Assembly: GCF_026213295.1 (NCBI RefSeq)
Contig: NC_079413.1
Span: forward strand, 19,507,378-19,571,377
Length of the DNA stretch: 64,000 nucleotides
Origin: Gadus chalcogrammus
Lineage: Eukaryota; Chordata; Actinopteri; Gadiformes; Gadidae
Direction: 5' to 3'
Positions within the stretch are counted from its first letter, which is position 1. The number at the start of each line of letters is the position of its first letter. Under the pieces are notes generated by a model. The model was not told the DNA's origin and did not search any database. It was given only the letters and a program-made list of their open reading frames with translations. The translations under genes were made by a program, and so were the position numbers. This document shows, piece after piece, positions 2,926-56,858 of this stretch.

Positions 2926-5900
2926 ATGTTAAGAACACAGTGTTTACTGTACCTCGGAGTCCTTGTGGGGATAACTGCTGCCAATGAGATGTTGAAAAAG
3001 TGCATTAGAGGCCATCACTCATTCCTCATGAACGTCGTGCTGCTGGAGGACAGCACGCACGACTGGAGCTTGCGCTACGTGAAGGAGGCCGTGCAGAACG
3101 CCATCGAGAAGGACTACAAGATCAACCAGGCCGAAGGTACGCACGACATACCGTACAATACGATACGATACATTTGTCCCACTCACTCAGACAAACACAG
3201 CCACCAACTCACTCACTCAATCAGACAAACGCAAACACACACGCGCACTCACTCACTCACTCACTCACTCACTCACTCACACGTTTAGGCATACACACTC
3301 TTGTTTTTTAATTAACAATACAGATTAGGTGCCATGGATTATTACACATTTCCCCAGCAAAACTGTTTCAGTCAGATATTTGGAGGCATCCCACTGTCTG
3401 TGTTTCATAATGTTTTTTTTTTGTGTAACTTTTTCTCTATAACAATAATAATAATAATTATAATAAGAACAGCTCAAATGGTAATAAACACAGGTAGATA
3501 TTTATAGACTTGACAATAACTAGTGTCGTGGACAAATACAAGAAGCCGAGAAGGAATGATCAAGGCTTTATTGTCACCGCAGAGAGTAGCCTATCAACAT
3601 TACCTGAGTTTTCTTTCAAAAGAACTGGCCAATTCGGCCCGGGATCACATGGATACATATATTCATACATTCACGCATTAGATACAAAGAGTTACATATT
3701 AAACATTAGTTACATGAAGTTTAGATATTATGCATTACAGTTATATGAAGTGAGGTTTTTGATTAAAATCCATTCATCGCCTTGTTTATTTACCTGATCT
3801 TAAATCACCATGACTTCCCACATGTGTTTAAGAGATGAGCCCTGTGAAAGCAATATAAATTTAAACAGTAAAATCGGCATTTGTGATAGTTAACAATGCC
3901 ACTTTATTTGTCTGTGGCAGATACACTCATAATCCTAAAGCTGGTATTGTCTGATTTTAACCGGGGAAAGGATTAGTTACCTTAATTTAACAATCCGTCT
4001 TTACGGATCGTTTTCGCCCGTTTCAGCTCCGTATGGATGGGGCCTAAGAAGCCATTTACATGGGGCGTCGGGGGTTCATCGGAATGGACATTAGTTTAAC
4101 AAAGGAAGACCAGGCAATATCAAGTCTTTAACATTTGGCTCCATTGTAAATATATTTACCTCATATTCTAATATCATTTATACTTAGTGTTAACCTTACG
4201 TATACTTATACTTATTATCTAAGTGAACTGAGAAATAGACTGATGTCATTGACTACGGAGGGATGTCTTGTGTTTGCCGGTCAATTCTGAACTCTCTGAG
4301 TTGTGTTGAATAACAATGGGACAGGTCTGGCGCCTGTCCTTCCCCTCCCTGATGGTACATTCCTCTCCACTAATATATTCTAACATTTGGCAAATATTCT
4401 TTTAAACCTTCATTATTTTCTGCCACACTAGGTGGTTAAAAACCAAGAAAGTGATATACTGGTCATTCACCAGGTCGTTGTGAACATAGTGAATTGTTAA
4501 ATGGTTAATTACCAGGTCGTTGTTAACACAGAGAGCTAGATTCCTAGCTAGAGTTTTAGCATCTTTTTAAAATACCAAAGGGGCGCGATTGCCAAAGACT
4601 TCTCTTGCTAGGCTAGGCTAGTTATTAGCAAGGTCGTTTTAAACACAGAGTAGTTGGGTGTTCAAACAGCCTTCGGTCTGGGAGTCAAACAGGTTGAGTT
4701 CAGAGACACCACTGTAGGAAGATGAACCGTGATACCTGAATGCATCAGGTTTTAGATGTTACAAATCCTTCCTCTCCCTGTGGAAACGTGTTGTGACAAC
4801 ATGACCAATGCTCGGGTAATATACAGGATGGTGTTCAGCACTGTTCAGCACTTTAGGGAGGCTTAGTCCAAACTGACAGCGTTCAGATACATGTGGGGAA
4901 GGAATCCTTTTTGTAGACCGGGCACGTGAACCCAGGAGTTTTAAGCCTCAAGAGACCGTCCAGAAATTGCAGGTGAGGTGACAGGGTTAGTTGTTAGGGT
5001 TAGGTCTTGGCTGAGGTGTTAGGTTGAGGTGTTAAGTGTTTTTCTATTGTAATCTCCTTATCCGTTTGTGTCACATTTATTGAATATTGATTGATTGGGG
5101 GCGGAGTCCTGGCTGATCGGTGCAGGGTTAATGAGTTTGATCGTCATTCATTAATGCTTGTGGTCTGCAGGTCTGTCCCTCAAGCTGACGGCGTCCTACA
5201 CGGGCTTCGACACCGCCGCCTACAACCGGCCCGGCTGCGGCAGCAGCAGCTGTGAGGGGGTGGAGATCCTCAAAGAACTGCACGTAGGAGAACACACGCA
5301 CGCACACACACACACACACACACACACACACACACACACACACACACACACACACACACACACACACACAGACACACACACGCACACACACACACACACA
5401 CACACACACACACACACACACACACCCACACACACACACACACACACACACACACACACACACACACACACACACACACACACACACACACACACACATA
5501 TAAAATACCACGTAGGATAACATACACACATGTAACACACACGTACAACAACACACACACAAACACACTCACACATAACATATATAAGATCCTTGTGTGT
5601 GGGACACACCCACATTTATCGAATACATATAACGCACACACACACACACACACGCACACACACACACACACGCACACACACACACAAACACACACACACA
5701 CACACACACACAGACATTTATCAAATACATATAACACACACACACACACACACACACACACACACACACACACACACACACACACACACACACCAAAACA
5801 TATATAAGATCCTCAAGGACCTGCTGGTAGGACACAAATACACACATGTATAACACAAACACACACACTTGACTGACACACACATATATACATAACATAC

Positions 5901-56100: not shown

Positions 56101-56858
56101 TGTGTGTGTGTGTGTGTGTGTGTGTGCGTGTGTGTGTGTGTATATGTCTTTGTTTGTGCGCGTATATACGTCACTGAATGTCTTTGCGTGTGCTTTTGCG
56201 TGTTTGTGTGTGTGTGTGTGTGTGTGTGTGTGTGTGTGTGTGTGTGTGTGTGTGTGTGTGTGTGTGTGTGTGTGTGTGTGTGTGTGTGTGTGTGTGTGTG
56301 TGTGTGTGTGTGTGTGACCTGTACGATGTAGAGGCAGGGACAGTGCTGGGCCCCGCCCCCGATGCTGATGCCAATCAGGTTCTGCCCGTCCTTCTTCAGA
56401 GTCACCGTTCCGGGGACCGTGGGTATGCCCCTGTAGGGGGAGGGGCCAACACGTGTCAATCAAGAGAAGACCAAGAGATCAAGATCATATTTACATCCAT
56501 CATATTGTAATCCATTTAAATATGATCTTTACCTCTCAGCTTAGAACAGTTGTAAGATAAGCAATAGATATTAAAAAATATATACTCTATATCTATCTAT
56601 CTATCTATCTATCTATCTATCTATCTATCTATCTATCTATCTATCTATCTATCTATCTATCTATAGTAGTATGTAGGTAAATAGAGGGAAAGATGGATAA
56701 AGAATCTTTATTGATTATATTTCTCATTCGTGTTGATCGCGTGATATGATATTTCAGACAAAATATATAAACAGACAAAAAACTATAACATTAATCACGG
56801 TATAAATGGTGCCTTACAACTTGTCTTCTTCAAGGTCATAGTCCATGTCAGTGAACAT
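50182..56858 (-). CDS. pick1: PICK1 (protein interacting with C kinase 1), 12 coding exons
   Basis: This is a PDZ-BAR scaffold that binds tails of membrane proteins such as AMPA receptors and PKC alpha and shapes vesicle membranes. Exons on the minus strand: 56858-56818, 56430-56319, 55842-55714, 54256-54190, 53676-53587, 53044-52991, 52784-52722, 52403-52270, 51835-51743, 51226-51176, 50964-50820, 50459-50182. All join in phase: 1257 nt, 418 residues (human 415). The PDZ has K27, D28 and the carboxylate loop LIGISIGG, and C44-P-C46 is kept. The BAR part includes VKHRLVENMSSGTADALGLS, VREPQAAASEAFVKFADAHR and NYEYRLVLRCRQEARARF. The tail has an E-rich run and ends IDDE. The intron after 51743 starts GCAAGT, a GC-AG intron. 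A 5' noncoding exon may end at 57696. Confidence 0.96.
50460..50720. repeat. Purine tract at the pick1 last-exon acceptor
   Basis: A G run at 50477-50493 then GGAGA-type repeats. On the sense strand it is the pyrimidine tract before the last exon. Confidence 0.9.
50967..51084. repeat. (CA)n tract at a pick1 acceptor
   Basis: About 118 bp of pure CA, (TG)n on the sense strand, ending 'gtgtgcag' at the exon 50964-50820. Confidence 0.96.
53165..53545 (-). repeat. Two SINE copies in pick1 intron 5
   Basis: Two neighbouring minus-oriented copies (about 53165-53295 and 53385-53545) share the words 'caccttgacact/cacctcgacact', 'gacagccagc' and 'tttgatccctggctcctcc' with the other SINEs. B-box words are in the minus strand. 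Confidence 0.7.
54258..54383. repeat. (CA)n tract at a pick1 acceptor
   Basis: About 125 bp of CA, (TG)n on the sense strand, ending 'gtgttag' at the exon 54256-54190. Confidence 0.96.
55415..55582 (+). repeat. tRNA-like SINE copy in pick1 intron 3
   Basis: It has 'tggttcgatcc', a B-box-like word, near 55458 and ends 'tagataaaagcgtc', a worn L2-like tail. The body differs from the main SINE, so it may be another subfamily. Confidence 0.5.
56078..56317. repeat. (GT)n compound tract after a pick1 donor
   Basis: GT tracts at 56078-56145 and 56206-56316. On the sense strand they are (CA)n starting right after the donor of the exon 56430-56319. Confidence 0.95.
56588..56664. repeat. (CTAT)n microsatellite in pick1 intron 1
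   Basis: About 19 tetranucleotide units without interruption. Confidence 0.95.

What the first reader, a model, noticed from the sequence alone, without database searches (positions are those of the whole stretch)
5171..56858. Strand-specific repeats at splice sites: TG/pyrimidine at acceptors, CA at donors
In the four multi-exon genes with enough introns, dinucleotide repeats within about 20 nt of a splice site follow a rule when read on the sense strand. (TG)n abuts acceptors: gucy2c exons 11, 13 and 20, tnfrsf13c exon 3, and pick1 exons at 50964, 53676 and 54256. CA-rich repeat abuts donors: gucy2c exons 2, 3, 4, 21, 24 and 25, and the pick1 exon ending 56319. I found no case of the reverse orientation at that distance. 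The rule holds for genes on both strands, so it is tied to transcription sense and not to the chromosome strand. The consensus ends (TG next to AG, and GT followed by CA) may seed repeats, or selection may keep UG-binding (TDP-43, CELF) and CA-binding (hnRNP L) sites where they help splicing.
Basis: partly seen in the sequence, partly recalled or inferred. Interest (0 to 1): 0.75.

Follow-up and report, generated by a model that had tools for sequence, protein, structure and literature searches.

The report
Dinucleotide repeats beside cod splice sites
In this codfish genome long TG repeats often lie just before the start of an exon while the mirror-image AC repeats do not, but the matching claim that only CA repeats follow exon ends was not borne out beyond the first genes looked at, and repeats of this kind at fish intron ends were already known.

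Summary
In 48 modelled introns of the window, tracts of 8 nt or more within 50 nt give donors AC 9, TG 0 and acceptors AC 0, TG 8. Chance placement does not explain this (0 of 2000 rotations).

Outside the window the two halves differ. Translation-checked myosin sites give acceptors TG 8, AC 0, but donors AC 4, TG 4. Whole-genome forward-strand counts agree. At acceptor-like motifs TG:AC is 142:71, against 83:106 at a one-base decoy (p 6e-6). At strong donors AC:TG is 25:56, against 10:29 at a decoy (p 0.67).

Fish introns with AC at the 5' end and GT at the 3' end are published (Lin et al. 2016, seen only through citing papers), but there the two ends of one intron pair; here 0 of 48 have both. 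Best reading: a filter, since (UG)n can stand in for a polypyrimidine tract and (AC)n cannot.

Striking residue: three window acceptors sit on TG tracts of 57-124 nt with no adenine for 122-129 nt, implying distant branch points.

The parts
5303..5793 (+). (AC)n array after gucy2c exon 2 donor (exon ends 5283); first strict tract 19 nt into the intron
6161..6171 (+). first strict AC tract of gucy2c intron 3, 39 nt after donor 6121; the donor is CA-rich only loosely
6621..6951 (+). AGGGACACACACC minisatellite after gucy2c exon 4 donor (exon ends 6617); strict AC tract from 46 nt
13415..13559 (+). (TG)n array ending 3 nt before gucy2c exon 11 (13563); nearest upstream adenine 126 nt away
13645..13944 (+). 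gucy2c intron 11: TG arrays inside, short TG tract 14 nt from acceptor 13945; GTAAACACAC at its start is the exact complement of GTGTGTTTAC near its end
   Evidence: complement read directly from the sequence
14335..14445 (+). (TG)n array 7 nt before gucy2c exon 13 (14453)
19084..19238 (+). (TG)n array 7 nt before gucy2c exon 20 (19246)
21817..21861 (+). (CA)n tract 12 nt after gucy2c exon 21 donor (21804)
26221..26346 (+). AC-rich tract 5 nt after gucy2c exon 24 donor (26215; weak donor, score -4.8)
29300..29308 (+). short AC tract 5 nt after gucy2c exon 25 donor (29294)
32195..32285 (-). (TG)n in tnfrsf13c sense; 44 nt from the open-frame acceptor 32150, not abutting it
50968..51084 (-). (TG)n in pick1 sense, 3 nt before the exon starting 50964, in a 211-nt intron; nearest upstream adenine 122 nt away
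53682..53757 (-). TG-rich tract before the pick1 exon starting 53676; last strict tract 15 nt away
54260..54383 (-). 124-nt (TG)n in pick1 sense, 3 nt before the exon starting 54256; nearest upstream adenine 129 nt away
56064..56316 (-). (CA)n in pick1 sense, 2 nt after the donor at 56319; not in a TG-tailed intron

Best explanation
Codfish introns are flooded with (AC)n/(TG)n microsatellites. Near acceptors the splicing machinery filters them by strand: a sense (UG)n array still offers uridines and contains no AG, so it can replace the polypyrimidine tract, while a sense (AC)n array offers no uridine and is lost. Near donors either orientation can survive: AC brings no competing GT, and TG can merge with or even form the donor. 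The clean donor rule in the window is mainly a run of AC-rich introns in one gene plus sampling. Shown: the positions, the strand bias at acceptors, and the lack of a clear donor bias outside the window (8 sites) and at strong donor motifs. Inferred: that (UG)n acts as the tract, and that selection rather than mutation makes the bias.
For: Acceptor tallies TG:AC are 8:0 in the window and 8:0 in translation-checked sites outside it (two-sided binomial 0.008). Whole genome, forward strand: TG:AC 142:71 before Y8NCAGG and 83:106 before the one-base decoy Y8NCTGG (Fisher 5.5e-6). In 143 introns, window included, rotation shows acceptor AC depletion (0 against 4.7 expected, P 0.0003). In the window's TG acceptors the repeat stands where the pyrimidine tract should be: 45-60% pyrimidine in 7 introns against a median of 75% in 41 (p 0.0003), as a TG array dictates. 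In human cortex data, T-rich repeat orientation on the coding strand near exons is tied by the authors to the polypyrimidine tract (PMC13174678, passages), though its methods leave it unclear whether AC/GT units were counted. Gadiform genomes average 5.2% short tandem repeats (PMC10546739, passages).
Against: TG at acceptors exceeds rotation (10 against 5.0, P 0.002), which a pure filter does not predict. In the same 143 introns donors too show AC excess (11 against 4.6, P below 1 in 3000) and TG depletion (1 against 4.8, P 0.008), driven by the window. Pooled donor tally 13:4 (p 0.049), and donors against acceptors outside the window only p 0.077. Outside introns are from myosin genes. Motif counts mix real and false sites; base counts of the acceptor motif and decoys were not taken. 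Isoform use and U2AF binding were not measured.
Confidence: 0.5

Rival explanations
1. Paired-end introns as in Lin et al. 2016: AC at the 5' end and GT at the 3' end of the same intron pair, bridge the splice sites and make U2AF2 dispensable.
For: Citing papers describe this orientation for fish (PMC6093180, PMC7404189, PMC9198270, passages). One intron of this genome has it: L020 1677-1819, AC 13 nt from the donor and a 9-nt TG tract 15 nt from the acceptor. Gucy2c intron 11 has complementary ends. One-sided introns lean towards a loosely complementary other end: mean rank 26.5 of 71 for 10 TG-tailed and 26.6 of 72 for 11 AC-headed introns, best 3/71, 4/71 and 1/72 (means worked by hand).
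Against: 0 of 48 window introns have both tracts. Own-end duplexes (100 nt each) are no stabler than mismatched ends (-31.7 against -33.1, permutation p 0.67). Several pairings across introns would skip exons (inference).
Confidence: 0.15
2. Positive selection for protein sites: UG sites (TDP-43, CELF, PUF60) upstream of exons and CA sites (hnRNP L) downstream help splicing.
For: TG at acceptors and AC at donors exceed rotation in the window (8 against 4.1 and 9 against 3.6 at 50 nt). AC donors tend to be weak (6 introns, median score 0.35, against 2.96 in 42; p 0.054), as expected if CA compensates. AC and GT repeat length is associated with HNRNPL and TARDBP binding in human (PMC13174678, passages).
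Against: Donor bias is not seen outside the window (4:4) nor at strong donors genome-wide (p 0.67). No binding or splicing data here. The weak-donor trend may be repeats overwriting +3 to +6.
Confidence: 0.2
3. Mutational seeding: splice consensus sequences start the repeats, GTGAGTGTG at donors and TGTG-rich polypyrimidine tracts at acceptors.
For: A strong donor running straight into (GT)n follows a coding-like exon (L085), and donors made of (GT)n exist (L020, L079). TG is enriched, not only tolerated, at acceptors.
Against: It predicts TG at donors, the opposite of the window. It does not explain why AC is rarer before the acceptor-like motif than before the decoy while TG is commoner (71 against 106 and 142 against 83).
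Confidence: 0.15

Closest known systems
(AC)m-(GT)n introns of fish (Lin et al., Genome Res 2016, PMC4691745)
   Same: Teleost introns; AC downstream of 5' splice sites and GT upstream of 3' splice sites, in transcription sense. A citing paper puts it at about 10% of zebrafish introns (PMC6093180, passage). The original was not held.
   Different: The defining co-occurrence at both ends of one intron is absent in 48 of 48 window introns; arrays here are one-sided and up to 124 nt; the donor half is not seen outside the window.
AC and GT repeats as predicted intronic splicing enhancers of fish (Yeo et al., PNAS 2004)
   Same: Recalled claim: short AC and GT repeats are predicted intronic enhancers in fish and not enriched in mammalian introns. 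I saw only a reference-list entry; the paper is not held.
   Different: Here very long arrays, with a strand bias tested against decoys.
Human poly(UG) tracts near splice sites, including CFTR intron 8
   Same: UG repeats lie close to 3' splice sites; 12 repeats can fold into a quadruplex (PMC12276007, passages).
   Different: In human they are stated to be enriched near both 5' and 3' splice sites; in CFTR an expanded repeat causes mis-splicing, while here the array sits at exons present in the homologous proteins.
Exons with distant branch points (Genome Biol 2006, PMC1431707; title and start of abstract seen in a search listing)
   Same: A long AG-free stretch before the acceptor implies a far branch point.
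   Different: Here the stretch is a pure microsatellite with no adenine at all.

Membership tests
(AC)m-(GT)n bridging introns (Lin et al. 2016) | AC tract just downstream of the 5' splice site | tested here: met
   9 of 48 window introns within 50 nt
(AC)m-(GT)n bridging introns (Lin et al. 2016) | GT tract just upstream of the 3' splice site | tested here: met
   8 of 48 window introns within 50 nt
(AC)m-(GT)n bridging introns (Lin et al. 2016) | Both tracts in the same intron | tested here: not met
   0 of 48 in the window and 0 of 129 homology-modelled introns outside; one further intron outside, in L020, has it
(AC)m-(GT)n bridging introns (Lin et al. 2016) | Intron ends pair with each other better than chance | tested here: not met
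   permutation p 0.67 over 48 introns; weak tendency among one-sided introns
(AC)m-(GT)n bridging introns (Lin et al. 2016) | Splicing independent of U2AF2 | not testable with these tools
   needs knock-down or in-vitro splicing
Distant-branch-point exons | No AG and no usable branch adenine in about the last 40 nt | tested here: met
   three window acceptors and one outside have no adenine (beyond the final AG) for 122-135 nt; nearest upstream AG 124-238 nt
Distant-branch-point exons | Mapped distant branch point | not testable with these tools
   needs lariat sequencing

The most novel reading that the evidence does not exclude
Gadid genomes hold a class of acceptors made of a pure (UG)n array running to the AG. 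With no adenine for over 120 nt they must use far branch points, and the array serves as a very long polypyrimidine-tract substitute, perhaps compacted as a poly(UG) fold. Array length polymorphism would then directly tune splicing of ordinary genes such as pick1 and gucy2c.
Probability: 0.25. Interest if true: 0.6.

Novelty: new variant of a known kind. Interest (0 to 1): 0.38.

Why it matters
It separates two claims that looked like one symmetric rule: a strand bias at acceptors that recurs in this genome, and a donor rule that so far does not. It also points to natural acceptors where a microsatellite takes the place of the polypyrimidine tract and pushes the branch point beyond 120 nt, which would let U2AF requirement, AG scanning distance and repeat-length effects be studied in ordinary genes.

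Tried and rejected
Tried: simple ab initio exon listing before homologues were found (incomplete, used only to compose queries). Ab initio exons with a codon model trained on the same genes (in the window 18 of 24 predicted donors and 13 of 24 predicted acceptors exact; of 128 donors AC 6, TG 3; of 131 acceptors TG 7, AC 0). From I dropped L060 (its locus was fetched for an AC donor) and L067 (repetitive translation), moved L010 to the later exon end (judged by eye), and set aside L061 (locus fetched for an AC donor). I added from the homology lists a second L019 donor, the L074 acceptor and one TG donor in the C3 gene (a junction with a 9-residue gap in the protein alignment, so less sure). 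Two regions behind the outside tally (C3 27.17 Mb and L069) were fetched because a first look had shown tracts there; without them the donor tally is 4 AC to 2 TG and the acceptor tally does not change.

Rejected: that the window shows bridging introns in general; that the donor rule is genome-wide; and the 'pattern read backwards' columns as main control (other flanks; one-base decoys used instead). Coding context of strong-donor sites: 5 of the first 20 listed TG sites and 3 of 10 distinct AC sites score like real exons (cut-off set after seeing the scores).

Failed scripts: searches (N in sequence; name clash), rerun. Paper searches that brought nothing closer. I make no claim that anything is absent from print.

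Full report
Origin. The window lies at C2:19507378-19571377 of a 629.9-Mb assembly. The best protein matches are Gadus chalcogrammus, G. morhua and Arctogadus glacialis, so it is a gadid; the species was not settled. AC arrays are extremely common (about 3.5 million overlapping 30-mer hits on the two strands), in line with the published short-tandem-repeat excess in codfishes (5.2% of the genome on average; PMC10546739, passages).

Gene models. I aligned homologous proteins to the window with splice-aware junction scoring and set five junctions by reading frame. The set has 48 introns: gucy2c 26, pick1 11, plbd1 10, tnfrsf13c 1 (its first intron was not modelled, and it has no homologue alignment). 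One pick1 intron is GC-AG (donor at 51743).

Observation. The donors of gucy2c exons 3 and 4 are CA-rich but their strict tracts start at 39 and 46 nt. The tnfrsf13c claim fails by frame: the acceptor touching the TG array brings a stop at the seventh codon, and the open one lies 44 nt from the array. Counts within 50 nt: donors AC 9, TG 0; acceptors AC 0, TG 8. Within 80 nt one TG donor and two AC acceptors appear. Fisher p is 4e-5 at 50 nt, and no rotation of intron interiors in 2000 reached the observed contrast. The sites are not independent: eight of nine AC donors are in gucy2c.

Little sign of pairing within introns. None of the 48 introns has AC at the donor and TG at the acceptor. Duplex energies of own 5' and 3' ends are no better than with ends of other introns (permutation p 0.67). 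Among 21 one-sided introns the other end is somewhat more complementary than average (mean ranks 26.5 of 71 and 26.6 of 72, means by hand). Bridging is therefore not the general explanation here, though L020 outside the window holds one intron of that type.

Other introns of the genome. A Pfam myosin-head search gave exons across the genome. An intronless myosin locus (L006) served as protein query, giving 129 distinct introns outside the window; their tally within 50 nt is donors AC 2, TG 1 and acceptors AC 0, TG 4. A codon-model scan added sites (of 128 donors AC 6, TG 3; of 131 acceptors TG 7, AC 0), which I checked by translation and position. Leaving out sites in loci fetched by a repeat pattern, and false exons, the tally is acceptors TG 8, AC 0 and donors AC 4, TG 4. 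The TG donors include two where the donor GT is the first unit of the array (L020, L079), one 9 nt away (L069) and one 27 nt away (C3 gene). One AC array ends 51 nt before an acceptor, just outside the cut-off (L020). Two of the TG donors come from regions I enlarged after seeing tracts there; without them the donor tally is 4:2. With so few sites the donor-acceptor difference outside the window is p 0.077.

Whole-genome motif counts. In the listings, forward-strand matches appear once per site and reverse-strand ones many times, so I used forward counts only. The strong donor CAGGTRAGT occurs 5528 times forward; 25 have (AC)5 and 56 have (TG)5 within 25 nt. The one-base decoy CAGCTRAGT gives 10 and 29: odds ratio 1.3, p 0.67. 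Among fetched sites 5 of 20 TG and 3 of 10 AC have coding-like upstream sequence. For acceptors, Y8NCAGG with TG upstream gives 142 and with AC 71; the decoy Y8NCTGG gives 83 and 106: odds ratio 2.55, p 5.5e-6. The acceptor half of the rule is thus seen genome-wide, and the donor half is at most slight at strong donors. Weak donors could not be tested this way, and AC donors in the window do tend to be weak (p 0.054).

Mechanism. The acceptor bias fits a filter on the polypyrimidine tract. In the window the 7 TG acceptors have 45-60% pyrimidine in the 20 nt before the last three, against a median of 75% for the other 41, so the array has replaced the tract. A sense AC array would supply no uridine. 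TG enrichment over rotation (10 against 5.0) leaves room for seeding or positive use as well. At donors AC is silent because it contains no GT, while TG can be the donor itself.

A by-product is the distance to any adenine. At acceptors 13563, 54256 and 50964, and at one myosin acceptor (L019), no adenine occurs for 122-135 nt. If these exons are spliced as the homologous proteins say, their branch points lie beyond that, against the usual final 40 nt (PMC1431707, start of abstract in a listing). In the 211-nt pick1 intron that leaves at most about 89 nt from the donor. Whether the array merely lengthens the scan or folds (poly(UG) fold, PMC12276007, passages) is open.

Relation to what is known. 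Fish introns with AC after 5' and GT before 3' splice sites are published (Lin et al. 2016; seen only through passages of PMC6093180, PMC7404189 and PMC9198270). From recall, Yeo et al. 2004 predicted AC and GT repeats as fish intronic enhancers. What differs here is that arrays are one-sided, very long, and reliably strand-biased only at acceptors.

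Noticed in passing
window 51743 (minus strand): pick1 has a GC-AG intron between the exons ending 51743 and starting 51226; the exon join agrees with the Arctogadus protein.
   Followed up: partly
window 35006-36798 (minus strand): Open frames that read like a LINE-type reverse transcriptase fragment between tnfrsf13c and plbd1; judged by eye from the translation only.
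   Followed up: no
G000:C21:15556989-15559013 (L006): A myosin head matched end to end in one open frame (positions 2-679, open frame 1956 aa): an intronless, apparently retroposed or intron-lost myosin gene.
   Followed up: no
G000:C1:654256-825104: In the listing, CAGGTGAGT recurs on the minus strand, often at 2.2-2.6 kb steps, suggesting a large tandem array with a perfect donor motif in each unit.
   Followed up: no
L020 1677-1819 (reverse strand of the locus): A 142-nt myosin intron with AC at its donor and a short TG tract at its acceptor, the Lin-type arrangement; the same gene also has a donor made of (GT)n.
   Followed up: partly
L061 (reverse strand), position 831 and the site that fetched it: Two separate AC donors in one 3-kb locus; one exon reads like a DOCK-family protein (recalled resemblance).
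   Followed up: no
window 13645-13654 and 13925-13934: The first ten bases of gucy2c intron 11 (GTAAACACAC) are exactly complementary to GTGTGTTTAC near its end, which could pair the donor with the acceptor region.
   Followed up: partly
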